Shown piece by piece: positions 1 to 5,038 of a stretch of 44,424 nucleotides of DNA. Location of the stretch: positions 1 to 44,424 of the forward strand of contig CALWJT010000018.1 of NCBI GenBank assembly GCA_944381075.1, in the 5' to 3' direction. The notes under the pieces were generated by a model. It did not search any database. It was not told the origin of the DNA and worked only from the letters and a program-made list of their open reading frames with translations. A program made the position numbers and the translations under genes. Source of the stretch: an uncultured Clostridia bacterium. Lineage in GTDB: Bacteria > Bacillota > Clostridia > Oscillospirales > CAG-272. Numbering within the stretch: position 1 is the first letter of the stretch; each line of letters opens with the position of its first letter.

Positions 1-90
1 GGGGATGTCATCATCAAAGGAGACGGCTCTGTTACCGTAACCGGGGATATCGAGGGAAGCATTACGGCGACCACCATAATTCGGGAATAA
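1..90 (+). CDS. 3' end of an unidentified protein (partial)
   Basis: The frame starting at base 1 is open and ends at a TAA at 88-90. It gives a 29-residue tail rich in Gly, Asp, Thr and Val with a repetitive beta-strand character (GDVIIKGDGS, then VTVTGDIEGS). The start lies outside the window. A strong hairpin terminator follows at once, which supports this being a genuine gene end. The tail is too short to name a family; short alternating Gly/Asp/Val repeats occur in beta-rich surface or polymer-forming proteins, but that is only a guess. It converges on the phage-like genes to its right. Confidence 0.5.
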   Translation, partial: GDVIIKGDGSVTVTGDIEGSITATTIIRE

Positions 91-110: not shown

Positions 111-144
111 AAACAAGGGGAACGGCAAGCCGTTCCCCTTGTTT
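111..144 (+). terminator. Rho-independent terminator after the partial plus-strand gene
   Basis: Arms AAACAAGGGGAACGG and CCGTTCCCCTTGTTT form a perfect 15-bp stem with a CAAG loop, followed by TCTTTCT. It lies 21 nt after the TAA of the partial gene. Symmetric A and T ends mean it could also stop leftward transcription from the tail-protein gene that ends at 227. Confidence 0.85.
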
Positions 145-226: not shown

Positions 227-1711
227 TTACTCCGAATAGAACCGATAGCTTCCCTCCAGCGTATAGACCGAATCCTTCAAAAGATCGGTATTTTGGATGA
301 TATAAAAGTAGGCTTTGTCATATGTTTTCGTGAAAATTCCCTGCGTGCCGGCATAGAAACGCCTGTCGCCAAGGTCCACCGCGGGATCGACGCGCATTTC
401 CAGCACATTGCCGCCGCTTTGCAGAACAAGACCCACCGCACTCTTATCGCCGCAGTCGGTCGCCGCCGAAGCGTCGAACATCGCGCGGTTCGTCCCGCCG
501 ATATAATGGCCCGTACCGCGCCACGGGGAAAGCGTCGTACACTGGAGGCCATACCATGTGGCGACCGTTACGTCCTCAAGCGGGACAAGGTCCACATGCA
601 CAAGGAAGCGCACGCCGTCGAAGAGGAGCCTGTGGCATTCGCGCAGCACCTCGCGTCCCGTCCCGTCGGATTTTTTGGTATTGTACGCCTGCACATAATT
701 GGTCCAGACCGCCTCGATCCGCTCGCAGTAGCCCTCCGCGTCCGCAACTTCCCTGCCGTCGGCGAAAAACTTGAGCTCCGCACAGCGCGCGGTCGGCGTG
801 CCGCCGGCGCCGGTATTGGTATATTCGTGATTGCCGCCGGTAAAATGGCCGGAGCTTACGGCGTCGCCGTCGATATCCGATTTTGCCGCCATGACAAACG
901 GAGAATGCCAGTCGCTCGTCGTCGTGACGGCGATCGTTCCGCCGCTGTAATCCGACGAGACAAACTCCGTCGCATTGTCGATAAACGCGAACTGATAGAA
1001 ATCAAACAGATTGTTGCCGCCCTTCTTTTTCAGGCGAACGCGCATATCCTTCGCGGCGGAATACTTGTATATGACGTCCAGAACGTCGCCGTCGGCATGA
1101 TAATACACCGGCTTTGTGAGCCTGTCCACGCGGGCATTCAGCGTTTCGATCTGCGTATCGAGAAAATAGTCGTAGTACCGTTCGTATTCCGTTGGCGCCG
1201 TCTCTCCCTTGACAAGCATACACGTCCGGTTGACCTCGAAAAGCGTCAGTCCTTTGTAAATGGCGTAATTGAACCGAAGATATTTCGTGCCGGCGGGCGT
1301 CGTAAACGAATTGGAGGTCGTCCCGCTGATATAATCCCCGTCCGCATCGTAGAAAAAAACGCCATAGGAAGCGTCCGCCCACGGCTTCGTGTAGCCGCTC
1401 TGCGCCGGTACAAGCCCCAGCCAGTACGCGGTCGACGGCTCCGCCTCGATCTTGGCCGTGCAGTGATAGGAATTGTCAAACTGCGCCGTCGGATACGGTA
1501 CGCCGTCCACATAGTAATGCGGGCTTATGGTGTCGTCCGTCTGTCCCGCAGGATCATATCGATTCGACGACGTTTTATGGAGAATATGCCCGAACGACGT
1601 CTTTTCCGGCGTGATAGCCCCGTCCGCGATCGCCGTTCCGTCTCTCGCGGCGGCGTCGGCAAGCTCATATTCCGTCTGTGTTTTATTGTCAAATATTTTC
1701 GTGATTTTCAT
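227..1711 (-). CDS. Phage tail / receptor-binding-like protein
   Basis: A 494-residue protein that looks like a tail-fibre or upper-baseplate component. The first 60 residues have the N-terminal character of BppU/tail-fibre proteins. Residues of about 60-180 form a beta-rich module ending in motifs common in Clostridia phage fibres (a 'FFYDADGDYISG' strand, 'FTTPAGTKYLRFNY', then a 'MLVKGETAPTEYERY' end). After a short helical linker (near 'LDTQIETLNARVDRL') comes a large beta-rich C-terminal domain that I do not recognise. An ATG at 1723 overlaps the previous stop. I prefer the ATG at 1711 because GGAGG lies 5 nt before it. It is translationally coupled to the BppU-like gene upstream. It probably contacts a cell-surface glycan; the ligand is unknown. 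Confidence 0.7.
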   Translation of the reverse strand: MKITKIFDNKTQTEYELADAAARDGTAIADGAITPEKTSFGHILHKTSSNRYDPAGQTDDTISPHYYVDGVPYPTAQFDNSYHCTAKIEAEPSTAYWLGLVPAQSGYTKPWADASYGVFFYDADGDYISGTTSNSFTTPAGTKYLRFNYAIYKGLTLFEVNRTCMLVKGETAPTEYERYYDYFLDTQIETLNARVDRLTKPVYYHADGDVLDVIYKYSAAKDMRVRLKKKGGNNLFDFYQFAFIDNATEFVSSDYSGGTIAVTTTSDWHSPFVMAAKSDIDGDAVSSGHFTGGNHEYTNTGAGGTPTARCAELKFFADGREVADAEGYCERIEAVWTNYVQAYNTKKSDGTGREVLRECHRLLFDGVRFLVHVDLVPLEDVTVATWYGLQCTTLSPWRGTGHYIGGTNRAMFDASAATDCGDKSAVGLVLQSGGNVLEMRVDPAVDLGDRRFYAGTQGIFTKTYDKAYFYIIQNTDLLKDSVYTLEGSYRFYSE

Positions 1712-1722
1712 AGGTCCCTCCA

Positions 1723-2187
1723 TCAGTTCAGAAAGAGCGTCTCGCCTGTCACACAGACAGGCGTACCCGTTTCCAGCGCATCGAATTCCTCCTCCAGCGC
1801 CTCCGCCTTGCTCATCGCGCCCGCTACCATGCTGCTGAGCGCTTCATATACCGTAGAGGACGGCGCCGCCGGCGCTGTTCCGTCGCCGTATCCCGATTCG
1901 CAGACGAGAAGCGGGGCGCTGTCCGCCGTCATAAGGTCGCCGCCGAAAACGGAGACCTGCCATATGCCCGCCGAAAAAACGGGCATGTCCCCGCTTGCGA
2001 TGGCGTCCTCCGACAGTACGACATGATACACCGTCTCTCCCTTCCGAAAGATAGCCGTTTTTACAATGCCGTCCCATTCCGGACCGAACGCAAAGGTACA
2101 GCCGATGAAATTGCGGCTGCCTGCGACCACGTGCGCATGGTCCACTCTTGCAATATGCTGCCTGTTTACTTGAAATTTGAGATCCAT
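1723..2187 (-). CDS. Phage baseplate upper protein (BppU-like), small
   Basis: A 154-residue protein beginning MDLKFQVNRQHIARVD. The N-terminal 100 residues resemble the N-terminal immunoglobulin-like domain of BppU (DUF2479) baseplate proteins: alternating strands with a central 'FGPEWDGIVKTAIF' motif typical of small clostridial phage tail accessory proteins. Residues 115-145 form a short Ala/Glu-rich helix that could trimerise or link to the fibre gene downstream. GGGAGG stands 5 nt before the ATG. The TGA at 1725-1723 overlaps an ATG of the next gene. No head, tail-tube or lysis genes are next to it, which is unusual for a baseplate gene. Confidence 0.65.
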   Translation of the reverse strand: MDLKFQVNRQHIARVDHAHVVAGSRNFIGCTFAFGPEWDGIVKTAIFRKGETVYHVVLSEDAIASGDMPVFSAGIWQVSVFGGDLMTADSAPLLVCESGYGDGTAPAAPSSTVYEALSSMVAGAMSKAEALEEEFDALETGTPVCVTGETLFLN

Positions 2188-2334
2188 ACATCCTCCCTTT
2201 CGGCCTTTTGGCCTTTCTTTTTATGAATCACCTGTTTTTTGAATCCAAAAGAAAACGGACAAATGATAAAACATATGTTTGTATTAGAATACCCCAACCG
2301 CTTCATGAAATACAAGGAAATCGACTGAAACGTT

Positions 2335-2721
2335 TTACGTCTGTTCAAAAATTTTTTCAAAATCCTCAAGCGCCATATCGTGGATATAGTGCGCGTTGCG
2401 CTCGCTCATGCCACCGCAGCTTTCCGCGACCTTCGCCCAGGTATCCCCCAAAATATACCTTCTGCGCAGAACAGCACGCGCCACCGGATCCTCCATCTCG
2501 TCAATCATCCTTGTCGCGTCTAATTTTTTTCTCGTCAAGGCCTGGATCAGCGCCTCTATCTCCTCCTCCCTTTGCGCAATCGCCGGCGATCCTGCATTTC
2601 CCGAAGAATCCTCGCCGCTTGACCTCCAGTAGGCAAGCTCCGCCGTTTTTTCCCCGATTTCCGTTCCGTACTGAAGCAGACCTTCCAAGTACTGCTTCCC
2701 TCTCATGTCTTCCTTCTTCAT
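2335..2721 (-). CDS. DUF1492-type phage regulator (sigma-70 region 4-like)
   Basis: A 128-residue protein. Residues 1-70 are mostly charged helix. Residues of about 70-128 carry the family-like core: a 'DEMEDPVARAVLRRRYILG' helix, 'TWAKVAESCG', then a recognition-like helix with 'SERNAHYIHDMALEDFEKIF'. This matches the DUF1492/ArpU-like late-gene activators of Gram-positive phages, which have a helix-turn-helix related to sigma-70 region 4. I chose the ATG at 2721 because GGAG sits 5 nt upstream; an open frame extending to 2823 would run through the promoter. Two tail genes lie downstream on the same strand after 147 nt, its likely targets or co-transcribed partners. A LexA-type box overlaps its start of transcription. 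Confidence 0.75.
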   Translation of the reverse strand: MKKEDMRGKQYLEGLLQYGTEIGEKTAELAYWRSSGEDSSGNAGSPAIAQREEEIEALIQALTRKKLDATRMIDEMEDPVARAVLRRRYILGDTWAKVAESCGGMSERNAHYIHDMALEDFEKIFEQT

Positions 2722-2753
2722 GGCTTCTCCTTTCCCATCCCATTTTTTAGTTT

Positions 2754-2799
2754 TGAACGTTTGTTCGCATATTTTACCACAACCTCCATAATTTGTCAA
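2754..2799 (-). promoter_or_regulatory. SOS-type promoter: sigma-A promoter overlapped by a LexA (Cheo) box
   Basis: On the minus strand, -35 TTGACA (2799-2794), a 17-nt spacer and -10 TAAAAT (2776-2771). Immediately downstream is CGAACAAACGTTCA (2767-2754), matching the Gram-positive LexA consensus CGAAC-N4-GTTCG at 9 of 10 specified bases. The site covers the predicted start of transcription near 2764, so LexA binding would block initiation. The DUF1492-type gene starts 33 nt further on. Confidence 0.8.
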
Positions 2800-2871
2800 T
2801 ATTTTTTTGTAAAATAATCCCATCTATCTCTTGTTGAAACGAATTTTTTTCCATTCTTCAGGTTTCTATTC

Positions 2872-2903
2872 AAAAAAAACGGACCAAGAGAAAAACCTCT
2901 CGG
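2872..2903 (-). terminator. Probable terminator, leftward
   Basis: On the minus strand CCGAGAG, a short loop and CTCTTGG (one G-T pair) form a 7-bp stem followed within 4 nt by a run of eight T. It would end transcription arriving from the AT-rich island before it reaches the SOS promoter. Confidence 0.55.
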
Positions 2904-3394
2904 ATCATCTTCTAATCGCAAATCGCTTTTCCTGGTCGATCAAAATTCTCGTATACAAAACCAATCGTGTGTGCCCTATCGGGAATCAGGACGACCCTGT
3001 AAGCAGATTCTCCTCTTTTTCGCATGGGCGAAAAAGAGGAGAATCATTCCAAGTGACCATACAGCGTCGCTATTATGAAAAACTTAATAGAAAGGCACCC
3101 ACATGATACCCACTGGCCACAACCGCCACCTTCGCTTCTTTACAGGATAAGTAAAAAACAGCTTGATGTATTCAGGTATTTTAGAAAGGTTGGGGGAAAA
3201 AGAAATATATTGCCACCAAATATTTTCCATTTTTATATGATATCTTTGTTGACGCCCTCACCGAAAACGGGAAACCAACGTACGGTAAGTTGCCCTTTTC
3301 TTTCATAGAAAAATATTCCTTAATTTAACAGCGATAAGGATACTCTACCTTTTGCTGTGATTATCCCTATTAAAAAAATCGTTTCTATGATTGA
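2904..3394. other. AT-rich non-coding stretch
   Basis: About 490 bases with no gene I can support. Open frames here lack recognisable motifs and good ribosome binding sites. The one clear structure is the perfect inverted repeat at 3006-3045. Base composition is well below that of the neighbours, as in the zincin gene to the right, which suggests the stretch belongs to the same acquired island. Confidence 0.6.
3006..3045. repeat. Perfect 18-bp inverted repeat (hairpin)
   Basis: Arms GATTCTCCTCTTTTTCGC (3006-3023) and GCGAAAAAGAGGAGAATC (3028-3045) are exact reverse complements around a 4-nt ATGG. No T-run follows on either strand, so it is not a classical terminator, though the stem contains five T/A pairs. 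It could be a terminator variant, a mobile-element remnant or a structured RNA end. Confidence 0.8.
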
Positions 3395-3985
3395 TCATCG
3401 TTGACATTGGTAGAAGTTTCCGAACATAAGTGCTCGGCGAGGGATATTTTTTAATATATAAAAAAATGAGAAAATGTCAGACCAAGCTAATGAAATATTT
3501 AAGACAACAAGCCAACATCCCAGCAGATAATGATGAAAAATAAAGAAAGGAATAACAAAAAATGATATGAGTAAAACCGGTGATATTAACACGAATAATT
3601 TCTGAGATTTTCTTAACCAAACACAATGCTCAACACTAATCGAAAAAGGAAACTTATATACGATTACAGCAGTCTTAATTTTATGCGGTAGGATTAATAG
3701 ATGAATCGATTCATGTAGAATGGTCAATGTTATTAGCGATACTACTGCTATTAAAACTAAACAGAAAAATAGCTGTATGTTAACTTCTTCGATGTTGAAA
3801 ACAGAACATATCTGACTTATATTTTTTGCCAAAAGCACCCCAAATGCTGCATACAACACGCAGTTGATTGGCGTTATATATTTTTTATACGCTGTTTTCC
3901 AATGACTATATATATTGCAATTCGGATAGTTTTCTGAAACTTTACAAATCAAATTTGAAAAAACATGTTCAGTTATTACTTTCAT
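3395..3985 (-). CDS. Integral-membrane zincin-like protein (DUF3267/M50-like)
   Basis: A 196-residue protein with about four membrane segments (near residues 38-56, 70-92, 129-150 and 157-182). The HESIH sequence, an HExxH zinc motif, lies at the end of the second hydrophobic segment. A later 'NISLAWSD' resembles the third-ligand region of DUF3267/M50-type membrane metalloproteases. This predicts a zinc-dependent intramembrane protease or a relative; no substrate is visible. The ATG at 3985 has GGAAGAG just upstream and overlaps the acyl-carrier-like frame by 17 nt, so the two were translationally coupled. Codon use is AT-rich, unlike the GC-rich neighbours, a sign of horizontal origin. Confidence 0.6.
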   Translation of the reverse strand: MKVITEHVFSNLICKVSENYPNCNIYSHWKTAYKKYITPINCVLYAAFGVLLAKNISQICSVFNIEEVNIQLFFCLVLIAVVSLITLTILHESIHLLILPHKIKTAVIVYKFPFSISVEHCVWLRKSQKLFVLISPVLLISFFVIPFFIFHHYLLGCWLVVLNISLAWSDIFSFFYILKNIPRRALMFGNFYQCQR

Positions 3986-4181
3986 TTCTCTCTTCCATTT
4001 GTTGTTCAATAATGGTAGATAGGTTATCAATATCTCTTATAGATTCCAATATAAGAATTTCGTCGGGGAATGTTATCTTATAAACTTCTTCAAGTTTTAC
4101 AATGAATGATACAAAAGATATCGAATCGAATGCCACTCTCTGTCGTGCATGGAATACACTACGACATGCCGTACTTTCCAT
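3969..4181 (-). pseudogene. 5'-truncated acyl carrier protein
   Basis: The C-terminal about 55 residues match acyl carrier proteins: 'FDSISFVSFIVKLEEVY' contains the DS motif whose Ser (codon at 4124-4122) carries 4'-phosphopantetheine, followed by 'ITFPDEIL' and a last helix 'IRDIDNLSTIIEQQ'. Helix 1 and the loop before DS are missing. Upstream of about 4140 the composition turns GC-rich and the frame runs into the end of the DUF368 gene. No ribosome binding site precedes the only in-frame ATG (4181). I infer a deletion or insertion breakpoint between 4130 and 4196 that removed the N-terminus. It overlaps the downstream zincin gene. Confidence 0.65.
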
Positions 4182-4195
4182 ATGGGCAGAAAAGC

Positions 4196-5038
4196 TTACG
4201 TAGCCTCTTTCTTGGAAATCCAGAAGATCGCACAAAATCCGGCGGCTGCCGTCAGGATGCAAAGCGGAATCTCCCAGCCGGTCGGCAAGCCCGGGAAAAG
4301 CTCAGGCAGCGACCCAAGGATAAAACCGAAGATCAGAAGATAGGTTCCCATCGGATGACGCCCCATCGCCCGCTCCAAAATTCCCGTCGTGAGAAAAATG
4401 CCGGCGAGCGTCCCGATAACGAGAGGAATAAACGACAAAAGCGCCATGAAATCAAGGCTGCTGACCGCTTCGGTCAGCGGCTCATAGATGCCAAGGACCA
4501 GAAGCATCTGAGAAACGCTGATCCCCGGCAGGACCAGCGCGACGGCAATCACAAGCCCGCCCACAAGCTGTATCAGAATTCCAAGCAGCAAGGAGAGGAA
4601 CCCCTCTCCGCCGATCTCAAAAAGTCCGGAGGGGATAAGGGAAATCGACAGCGCCGCCGCGATCCCGATGATCGGATACAGGAAAACCGCTGCGCTCACG
4701 CGCTTTACGCCGGCAGAACGGAAAATCATCGGTGCCCCTCCGACGACCGCTCCAAGAAAGAAAAACCGGGTCGGGAACGCGCACGCTTCGTTCTCCAGTA
4801 AAAAAGTGATGAGCTTTGAAAACAGAAAAAGCCCTGCGACCGCGCCGAGAAGAAATTTTAAAAGAAAAAGGATGCTTTCACGGCGTCTCTCCTTATGAAA
4901 AATGCCGTTGACGGACCCAATCAAGCGGTCATAGACGCCGAGGATCATCGCCATTGAACCGCCGGAAACGCCCGGCACCGTCATGGTGCCGCCGATCCAT
5001 GCGCCGGAGGCTATCGTATAGATTGTGTTGATTTTCAT
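4196..5038 (-). CDS. DUF368 membrane protein (PopT-type undecaprenyl-phosphate translocase)
   Basis: A 280-residue polytopic membrane protein. The N-terminal 'GGTMTVPGVSGGSMAMILGVYDRLI' block and the internal 'ALVLPGISVSQMLLVLGIYEPL' block are the paired PGxSG-type repeats of the DUF368 family, an inverted duplication. Some members (PopT) are established as flippases returning undecaprenyl phosphate across the membrane for wall synthesis; that role is inferred here by family. Length fits the family. A -10-like TATAAT lies at 5079-5074 without a convincing -35. Immediately downstream is the island junction with the truncated acyl carrier protein, so the native downstream context has been lost. 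Confidence 0.85.
   Translation of the reverse strand: MKINTIYTIASGAWIGGTMTVPGVSGGSMAMILGVYDRLIGSVNGIFHKERRRESILFLLKFLLGAVAGLFLFSKLITFLLENEACAFPTRFFFLGAVVGGAPMIFRSAGVKRVSAAVFLYPIIGIAAALSISLIPSGLFEIGGEGFLSLLLGILIQLVGGLVIAVALVLPGISVSQMLLVLGIYEPLTEAVSSLDFMALLSFIPLVIGTLAGIFLTTGILERAMGRHPMGTYLLIFGFILGSLPELFPGLPTGWEIPLCILTAAAGFCAIFWISKKEAT

What the first reader, a model, noticed from the sequence alone, without database searches (positions are those of the whole stretch)
227..2799. SOS-controlled mini tail cassette: LexA box, DUF1492-type regulator, baseplate and receptor-binding genes
Seen: a near-consensus promoter whose start is covered by CGAACAAACGTTCA, followed by a DUF1492-type gene and two tail-type genes, with no terminase, portal, capsid, tube or lysis gene in view. 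Known: DUF1492/ArpU proteins activate phage late genes, and LexA boxes make genes DNA-damage inducible. Inference: this is either a domesticated remnant or a stand-alone damage-induced source of tail-tip proteins, possibly supplying a tail particle encoded elsewhere.
Basis: partly seen in the sequence, partly recalled or inferred. Interest (0 to 1): 0.72.

Follow-up and report, generated by a model that had tools for sequence, protein, structure and literature searches.

The report
SOS-controlled tail genes of phage-like particle
This gut bacterium keeps tail-fibre genes and a switch gene under what looks like DNA-damage control, and a separate set of virus-head genes elsewhere in its chromosome carries the same control signal, which suggests a domesticated particle of the kind known to package bacterial DNA in gut bacteria, although particle production itself was not tested.

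Summary
A near-consensus promoter (11 of 12) with a LexA-type box at its start drives a DUF1492/ArpU-type gene, followed by a gene of BppU-like fold and a 498-aa fibre-type gene. The window is a whole contig, so this genome shows no upstream context; the same locus in a congener (G003) does, and no phage gene flanks it. The DUF1492 gene is an old resident: beside a DUF368 permease in 6 of 6 congeners that have either, each with the boxed promoter. The fibre pair is in 2 of the 6 and looks selected, not decaying.

Following the box through the family led to a likely partner: a compact head operon (Zn-ribbon, TerS-like, TerL, P22-type portal, scaffold-like, capsid, hub-like) on contig C5 of the same genome, with relatives in four other genera. 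A box stands at its promoter in 10 of 10 family genomes whose operon start is assembled. The layout matches FpGTA, the two-operon podovirus-like gene-transfer-agent-like element of Faecalibacterium (2026), for which that paper's text never mentions LexA. Best reading: a LexA-controlled, split, GTA-like particle. The link between the two loci is inferred, and against it the parts do not always travel together.

The parts
2771..2799 (-). Promoter of the DUF1492 gene: TTGACA, 17-nt spacer, TAAAAT with TG before the -10
   Evidence: 11 of 12 match; same promoter type in 6 of 6 congeners
2754..2767 (-). LexA-type box CGAACAAACGTTCA over the expected transcription start
   Evidence: top site of the window by the family matrix; box at the same place in 6 of 6 congeners
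2335..2721 (-). DUF1492 / ArpU-type (phrog_36) regulator, 128 aa; old chromosomal resident next to the DUF368 permease
2268..2281 (-). Second, weaker box (core AAACATATGTTT) before the 154-aa gene; G003 has GAACAAAAGTTC before its copy
   Evidence: 9.35 bits; G003 13.45 bits
1723..2187 (-). 154-aa baseplate/fibre-attachment type protein with BppU-N-like fold and a C-terminal helix
227..1723 (-). 498-aa fibre / receptor-binding type protein, 68% identical in G003
   Evidence: N- and C-terminal types occur in one 925-aa frame in G077
111..144 (.). Palindromic intrinsic-terminator-like stem between the fibre gene and the convergent neighbour
1..90 (+). End of a non-phage GDV-repeat protein; the G003 locus has HTH proteins with the same repeat type, convergent, on that side
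   Evidence: sequence compared with L030 9911-12418, by eye
4196..5038 (-). DUF368-type permease (name recalled, by eye), the conserved upstream neighbour (flank, not part of the cassette)
   Evidence: present in 6 of 7 genomes of the genus; next to DUF1492 in all six

Best explanation
The window holds the regulator-plus-tail-tip arm of a domesticated, LexA-controlled, split phage-like particle of gene-transfer-agent type. Shown by sequence: (1) a LexA-type promoter precedes a long-kept DUF1492/ArpU-type gene and, in G000 and G003, a two-gene fibre unit with its own second box; (2) the same genome carries on contig C5 a compact P22-like head operon (Zn-ribbon, TerS-like, TerL, portal, scaffold-like, capsid, about 200-aa protein, hub-like) with no integrase or replication gene seen beside it; (3) that operon is kept across genera and has a LexA box at its promoter. 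Inferred: on DNA damage RecA inactivates LexA, both loci are derepressed, the DUF1492 protein (activator by family) raises the fibre unit and perhaps other late genes, the head operon makes DNA-packaging heads with a short tail, and the BppU-like subunit fixes the 498-aa fibre to it. No lysis gene was seen in the stretches of G000 that were read; none was searched for genome-wide. Packaging of host DNA, release and transfer are assumed from the FpGTA precedent.
For: Box and promoter. The box is the family's LexA box: in the fetched sample it precedes dinB, lexA, recA, uvrBA and a uvrD-like gene (by eye), and the LexA HTH is conserved, G000's included. Chromosomal setting. Selection. Head operon in G000, G001, G003: (G000 TerL PF03237 1.7e-12; G001 portal PF16510 2.2e-9 and capsid PF25209 4.7e-6, 27.5 bits against a cut-off of 27); capsid 78-79% identical to G000's, low dN; capsid relatives in 14 of 395 family genomes, at most one each. 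It follows rqcH (by eye) in 4 of 7 family genomes whose upstream flank can be read: G000, G135, G490, G527, three genera; G000 and G001 share a sigma/anti-sigma pair downstream. LexA box at the head promoter in 10 of 10 family genomes with the operon start assembled. BppU-type fibres go with P22-type heads: one LexA-boxed stretch of G123 holds P22_portal (5.7e-29) and BppU_N (2.9e-5); prophage L037 has P22_portal (5.3e-14) and a 154-like fibre. Precedent: FpGTA I (head) and FpGTA II (baseplate, fibre, RBP, lysis), about 125 kb apart (PMC12946183, sections 9, 10 and 26 read).
Against: G001 has the head operon and DUF1492 but no fibre pair; G002, G004 and G005 have DUF1492 but no capsid hit (75, 93 and 87% complete), so the parts do not travel as one unit. 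G010 and G027, which have the head operon, gave no DUF1492 hit. The operon is not after rqcH in G001, G134 and G010. In G001 a serine-recombinase-like gene with ParB- and Mob-like genes lies about 4 kb upstream (by eye). The G481 copy lacks TerL and the first 188 portal residues on its contig, a broken copy or misassembly. No holin or endolysin was seen beside either locus in G000. The box also stands before ArsR/metal-ATPase-type genes, where it may be an ArsR operator. Five other stand-alone 154-like loci showed no box in my scan. In the genus, boxes before lexA score low and recA mostly has none. BppU-type subunits are best known from long-tailed phages (recalled). G123's contig starts 0.17 kb before its box, so an early phage region there is not excluded. 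Homology to FpGTA proteins was not tested.
Confidence: 0.57

Rival explanations
1. The DUF1492 gene and fibre pair are a stand-alone SOS-inducible module (surface display, or a bacteriocin- or tailocin-like weapon) with no functional tie to the head operon.
For: Distribution is uncoupled in part (G001, G002, G004, G005). A relative of the fibre's C-terminal part lies in a 599-aa protein of G101 with Cu_amine_oxidN1 domains and, by eye, a signal peptide. Other boxed mini-cassettes exist: lysozyme (L184) and barnase with barstar (L185).
Against: The 154-aa fold is a virion-attachment type domain; it shows no signal peptide by eye; P22-type portal and BppU_N share one LexA-boxed stretch in G123.
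Confidence: 0.22
2. The fibre pair serves an ordinary prophage or tailed particle elsewhere in the genome rather than the C5 head operon.
For: A second terminase contig, C34 (3.2 kb), exists in G000; G003 has a prophage on C46 (by eye).
Against: No tape-measure (PF10145) hit in G000 or G003, 1 of 7 genomes of the genus hit. The pair lies at a chromosomal place shared by two species. C34 is too short to judge.
Confidence: 0.1
3. It is a decaying prophage remnant that has kept a few late genes by chance.
For: Few phage-type genes at the locus; the pair is missing from 4 of 6 congeners.
Against: Open frames over saturated synonymous divergence, low pN/pS; boxed promoter in 6 of 6 congeners; flanks non-phage in G003.
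Confidence: 0.05
4. The box is not a LexA site but the operator of another repressor, or of the DUF1492 protein itself.
For: Similar boxes precede ArsR or metal-ATPase-type genes (nine loci by eye); boxes before lexA in G000, G001 and G003 score low (6.3, 1.4, 4.1 bits) and recA in 6 of 7 genomes of the genus has no promoter-near box.
Against: Family members carry the same box before core SOS genes; the head operons, which have no DUF1492 beside them, have it too.
Confidence: 0.06

Closest known systems
FpGTA, podovirus-like GTA-like element of Faecalibacterium prausnitzii (PMC12946183, Nat Commun 2026; sections 9, 10, 26 and passages read)
   Same: Two separate chromosomal loci: a head operon (TerS, TerL, portal, scaffold, capsid) and a structural operon with baseplate, fibre and RBP genes; no replication genes; locus II not detected in part of the strains
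   Different: Here DUF1492 heads the fibre locus, LexA boxes mark both loci, the head operon begins with a Zn-ribbon gene, and no lysis genes were seen. Sequence homology to FpGTA was not tested; the paper's main text has no occurrence of 'LexA' or 'promoter'
RcGTA-type GTAs of Alphaproteobacteria (seen: search listing for R. capsulatus; passages of PMC6473078 for Dinoroseobacter shibae)
   Same: Some GTA genes outside the main cluster, a dedicated direct activator (GafA), links to LexA/SOS
   Different: Long-tailed type (recalled); GafA is not described as an ArpU protein; LexA input there is described beside CtrA and quorum sensing
UviA and the UV-inducible bacteriocin of Clostridium perfringens (passages of PMC10467148)
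   Same: A small sigma-like regulator switching on an effector inducible by DNA damage
   Different: UviA is a TcdR-type sigma factor, not DUF1492; the effector is a bacteriocin
PBSX of Bacillus subtilis (recalled; named in PMC12946183)
   Same: Damage-induced defective particle of a Gram-positive
   Different: Long-tailed, one large prophage-like block, controlled through its own repressor (recalled)
BppU of phage TP901-1 and the upper baseplate protein of phage 80alpha
   Different: No Pfam BppU_N hit for the window protein; those are parts of full siphophages

Membership tests
GTA-like element (FpGTA type) | Head and packaging genes (TerL, portal, capsid) in the host chromosome without integrase or replication genes | tested here: met
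   None seen by eye around G000:C5 (40 kb read) or beside G490, G527, G135, G010. Exception to weigh: a serine-recombinase-like gene about 4 kb upstream in G001. G003, G027 and G591 contigs end near the operon start
GTA-like element (FpGTA type) | Vertical inheritance at a fixed locus | tested here: inconclusive
   After rqcH in 4 of 7 with a readable upstream flank (G000, G135, G490, G527); not so in G001, G134, G010; G000 and G001 share downstream genes, G000 and G003 one. One copy per genome in 14 of 395
GTA-like element (FpGTA type) | Second locus with baseplate, fibre and RBP genes | tested here: met
   Window 227-2187, found in G000 and G003 only; that it serves the head operon is inferred
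GTA-like element (FpGTA type) | Holin and endolysin in the second locus | tested here: not met
   None in the window cassette or at G003:C9 (by eye); a distant lysis locus is not excluded. So it is called GTA-like by anatomy and not filed as FpGTA
GTA-like element (FpGTA type) | Sequence homology to FpGTA proteins | not tested
GTA-like element (FpGTA type) | Packages random host DNA | not testable with these tools
   Needs particles and long-read sequencing
LexA regulon (GAACN4GTTC type) | Box at the promoter, shared with core SOS genes of the clade | tested here: met
   weak at lexA and mostly absent at recA inside the genus
LexA regulon (GAACN4GTTC type) | LexA binds and damage induces | not testable with these tools
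   bench work
DUF1492 / ArpU-type regulator | Profile match over the curated cut-off | tested here: met
   PF07374 23.4 bits, cut-off 21.5; phrog_36 2.8e-13
DUF1492 / ArpU-type regulator | Activates late genes | not testable with these tools
   family knowledge only (recalled)
BppU_N domain | Pfam PF10651 sequence match of the 154-aa protein | tested here: not met
   so only 'BppU-N-like fold' is claimed
BppU_N domain | Fold match to solved BppU-type baseplate proteins | tested here: met

The most novel reading that the evidence does not exclude
A clade of gut Clostridia has an old gene transfer agent whose head operon and tail-tip/activator locus, on different contigs, are both wired directly to LexA, so that DNA damage alone starts DNA packaging for neighbours. 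The host-owned DUF1492 gene is its late activator, fibre genes are swappable cargo behind it, and LexA-boxed orphan ArpU genes and LexA-boxed late operons elsewhere in the family (G123, G029) are further versions of the same host-run programme.
Probability: 0.37. Interest if true: 0.88.

Novelty: new variant of a known kind. Interest (0 to 1): 0.72.

Why it matters
GTA-like packaging was reported in 2026 to be common in gut Clostridia, and the sections I read show no trigger (PMC12946183; SOS is mentioned there only in general). A LexA box at both loci, kept at the head promoter across genera, gives a concrete, testable trigger (DNA damage) and a sequence rule (LexA box, Zn-ribbon, TerS, TerL) for finding such elements in genomes. 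It also gives orphan DUF1492/ArpU genes a likely job, and warns that some short IMG/VR records (L242) may be host-owned particle operons rather than viruses.

Tried and rejected
Chance box: rejected by position conservation and the matrix, although the pattern alone is at chance level and one-mismatch boxes in G000 are fewer than those of the reversed control pattern (53 against 147 per strand). Remnant at a prophage edge: rejected from L030. Database relatives: the 498-aa protein has none in INPHARED by tblastn and its alignment none in IMG/VR; the DUF1492 alignment none in IMG/VR; these IMG/VR scans start from two short peptide patterns and can miss relatives. The 154-aa protein has weak relatives in 2 INPHARED records (best: Butyrivibrio virus Ceridwen, 33%, 3e-9) and DUF1492 in 4. 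G000's capsid has none in INPHARED. Structure of the 498-aa protein: pLDDT 31, not used. Foldseek against the PDB gave no hit at E<=1e-3 for the 154-aa model; the VIA second look and the viral library did. C8:36566-36614 in G000 has the same promoter-box layout, but a DinJ-like antitoxin gene (by eye) lies behind it and the contig ends in a peptidase-like frame with no profile match better than 0.02, so it was left open. IMG/VR contig L243 has the head genes but showed no box of the searched form.

The 40 loci were chosen from the remaining rows for the strict GAACN4GTTC form, so their gene mix is no random sample. Searches looked back only 330-400 bases and missed the G003 head promoter, which one search shows. 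dS values are saturated. The outgroup row of the tree joins LexA of one genome with RecA of another. Fetched but not analysed: L186-L190, L203, L208, L209, L235, L240, L241.

Printed record: searches of the held library gave FpGTA as the only two-operon podovirus-like precedent I saw and no report of LexA boxes at such operons; subscription papers are not held.
Full report
1. What is in the window. The window is the whole contig C18 of an unnamed 2.0-Mb genome in 47 contigs, 93.6% complete. On the - strand a promoter (11 of 12, TG before the -10) with the box CGAACAAACGTTCA at 2754-2767 precedes a DUF1492/ArpU-type gene at 2335-2721, a 154-aa gene at 1723-2187 and a 498-aa gene at 227-1723. 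The pattern with one mismatch is expected 2.5 times by chance in this window, so the pattern alone proves nothing. By a matrix from boxes of 14 repair-gene loci of family members, 2754 is the best site of the window, 14.5 bits, with 0.13 such sites per shuffled window in 30 shuffles.

2. The locus is ordinary chromosome. In 6 of 7 genomes of the genus a DUF368-type permease is found (G004 also has a second, distant one), and in all six the DUF1492 gene lies next to it; G006 has neither hit. All six have TTGACA-N17-TA(A/T)AAT followed by (A/G)AACNNNNGTT(C/T), though the G004 copy is poor (0.9 bits). In G003 the order is permease, DUF1492, 151 aa, 495 aa, transporter, two HTH/GDV-repeat proteins. 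In G001 and G002 the transporter follows DUF1492 directly. Contig C18 begins with the end of a GDV-repeat frame, convergent as in G003, so both flanks in G000 correspond, by eye, to chromosomal genes of G003. The fibre pair is present in 2 of 6. The two copies are 49% and 68% identical, with pN 0.33 and 0.21 against pS 0.75 and 0.68, like their neighbours (DUF368 pS 0.64, glyS 0.76): old and under selection. In a tree of LexA, RecA and DUF368, G000 groups with G002+G003 (support 81), so one loss in G002, or two gains, is needed.

3. The box is the LexA box of this family. The pattern promoter + box gave 121 matches (my sum of the table) in 77 of 118 family genomes, against 6 for the reversed control pattern. 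In 70 fetched loci with 72 promoter-box sites (40 of the loci chosen for the strict box form), repair genes named by eye are dinB (nine loci), lexA, recA, uvrB (two) and a uvrD-like gene. Nine loci hold ArsR or metal-ATPase-type genes, where the motif may be an ArsR operator. Of 20 proteins scanned, nine match phrog_36 (ArpU type) below 1e-5: L108, L130, L136, L145, L147 (second gene), L150, L151, L168 of the family, and L072 of another family of the order; L101, L144, L159 and L164 do not. So boxed ArpU genes recur, mostly without late genes nearby (L145 is in a late operon, L108 faces an HTH and an ImmA-like gene). G000's LexA has the same HTH motif as its relatives. Inside the genus the evidence at core SOS genes is thin: weak boxes before lexA in G000, G001 and G003, and a box before recA only in G003.

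5. The partner. A terminase search of the genus led to G000:C5. From about 64.4 to 72.1 kb lie a 78-aa Zn-ribbon, a 155-aa TerS-like frame, TerL (442 aa), an open portal frame (566 aa), a 198-aa scaffold-like protein, the capsid (299 aa), a head protein and a 603-aa hub-like protein, followed by chromosomal genes. G001:C75 and G003:C30 have the same operon. Profiles: G000 TerL PF03237 1.7e-12; G001 portal PF16510 P22_portal 2.2e-9; G001 capsid PF25209 4.7e-6, just over its cut-off; the scaffold-like, 198-aa and hub-like proteins match nothing. Capsids are 78-79% identical to G000's; dN is 0.13-0.15 for the capsid, about 0.2 for TerL, 0.26-0.28 for the portal and about 0.6 for the hub-like protein, with pS 0.54-0.79. 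Capsid relatives occur in 14 of 395 family genomes, five genera, one copy each (the G054 hit is weak). Upstream lies rqcH in G000, G135, G490 and G527, but other genes in G001, G134 and G010; G003, G027, G591, G563 cannot be read that far. G001 has the same sigma/anti-sigma pair downstream as G000, and about 4 kb upstream a serine-recombinase-like gene with ParB- and Mob-like genes (by eye). The G481 copy lacks TerL and the portal's first 188 residues on its contig.

6. The partner is LexA-boxed too. Before the Zn-ribbon the promoter TTGACA-N17-TA(T/A)AAT carries a box just upstream of the -35, within the spacer, or both: G000, G001, G490, G135, G027, G527, G134, G591, G003 and G010: 10 of 10 family genomes with the operon start assembled. 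G563 starts inside the portal and G481 lacks the start; G528 and G054 were not fetched. Shuffles of each stretch give a box in 0.5-2.2% (eight stretches). Of two IMG/VR contigs with the capsid, L242 has a box before the -35 and L243 showed none.

7. Do the two loci belong together? For: the same control signal in the same genome; BppU-type fibres with P22-type heads in one LexA-boxed stretch of G123 (P22_portal 5.7e-29, BppU_N 2.9e-5; the contig starts 0.17 kb before the box) and in prophage L037 (P22_portal 5.3e-14; 154-like fibre); an ArpU gene between Zn-ribbon and TerS in a LexA-boxed late operon of G029; and the published FpGTA, whose particle proteins come from a head operon and a separate baseplate/fibre/RBP/lysis operon about 125 kb away, with 40-nm heads and about 9-kb DNA (PMC12946183, sections 9, 10, 26 read). 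Against: G001 has the head without the pair; G002, G004 and G005 have DUF1492 without the capsid; G010 and G027 have the head without a DUF1492 hit; no lysis gene was seen. I put the link at 0.57.

8. Comparison. The arrangement works like FpGTA; membership in that element is not claimed, since lysis genes are missing from the second locus and homology was not tested. LexA has been tied to GTAs in Alphaproteobacteria: predicted LexA sites at the GTA cluster and recA of Dinoroseobacter (passages of PMC6473078). New here, as far as the held library shows, are the LexA boxes at both loci of a podovirus-like GTA-like element, their retention at the head promoter across genera, and the DUF1492 gene in front of the fibre genes.

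Noticed in passing
window 2800-4195: Low-G+C insert (34% against 54% for the window) between DUF1492 and the permease, holding DUF3267 zincin-like and carrier-protein-like frames; not seen at this place in the five congeners read.
   Followed up: partly
L099 12567-13386 (G000:C8 end): Second promoter-plus-box site of G000 with a DinJ-like antitoxin gene (by eye) behind it and a peptidase-like frame cut off by the contig end.
   Followed up: partly
L233 (G123:C59, 15 kb): Three boxes before a 13-kb late-gene run, Zn-ribbon to hub-like gene, with P22_portal and BppU_N, ending near a greA-like gene; no integrase seen, but the contig starts 0.17 kb before the first box.
   Followed up: partly
L234 (G029:C31): Two boxes before Zn-ribbon, ArpU, TerS-like, TerL-like, portal-like, P22 coat protein, Dit, Gp37 and Amidase_3 genes, beside rnpA-yidC-like genes: a LexA-boxed siphovirus-type late operon; the contig ends behind the amidase.
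   Followed up: partly
L185 4754-5778 (G146:C27): Box before a ribonuclease (PF00545) with a weak phage-head-like N-terminus and a barstar (PF01337): a bacteriocin-like pair under SOS-type control.
   Followed up: no
L184 5957-7122 (G155:C42): Box before an 80-aa protein and a GH25 lysozyme, in non-phage surroundings: possible stand-alone lysis cassette.
   Followed up: no
L142 4185-4550 (G122:C22): Lone Spo0A C-terminal domain protein under a LexA-type box.
   Followed up: no
L111, L112, L123, L126, L148, L157, L160, L163, L166: GAACN4GTTC-like boxes at promoters of ArsR or metal-ATPase-type genes (by eye); ArsR operators and LexA boxes may look alike in this family.
   Followed up: no
L242 (IMGVR_UViG_3300024268_003959): IMG/VR contig of 7.5 kb that holds the boxed head operon; probably a host-owned particle operon filed as a virus.
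   Followed up: partly
L228 (G481:C35): Head operon without TerL and the portal's N-terminal third, other genes in their place: a broken copy or a misassembly.
   Followed up: partly
head operons, inside the Zn-ribbon gene: A box-like GAACATATGTTT lies within the Zn-ribbon coding sequence in six of six gaps printed; it encodes the conserved EHMF residues and may be coincidence.
   Followed up: no
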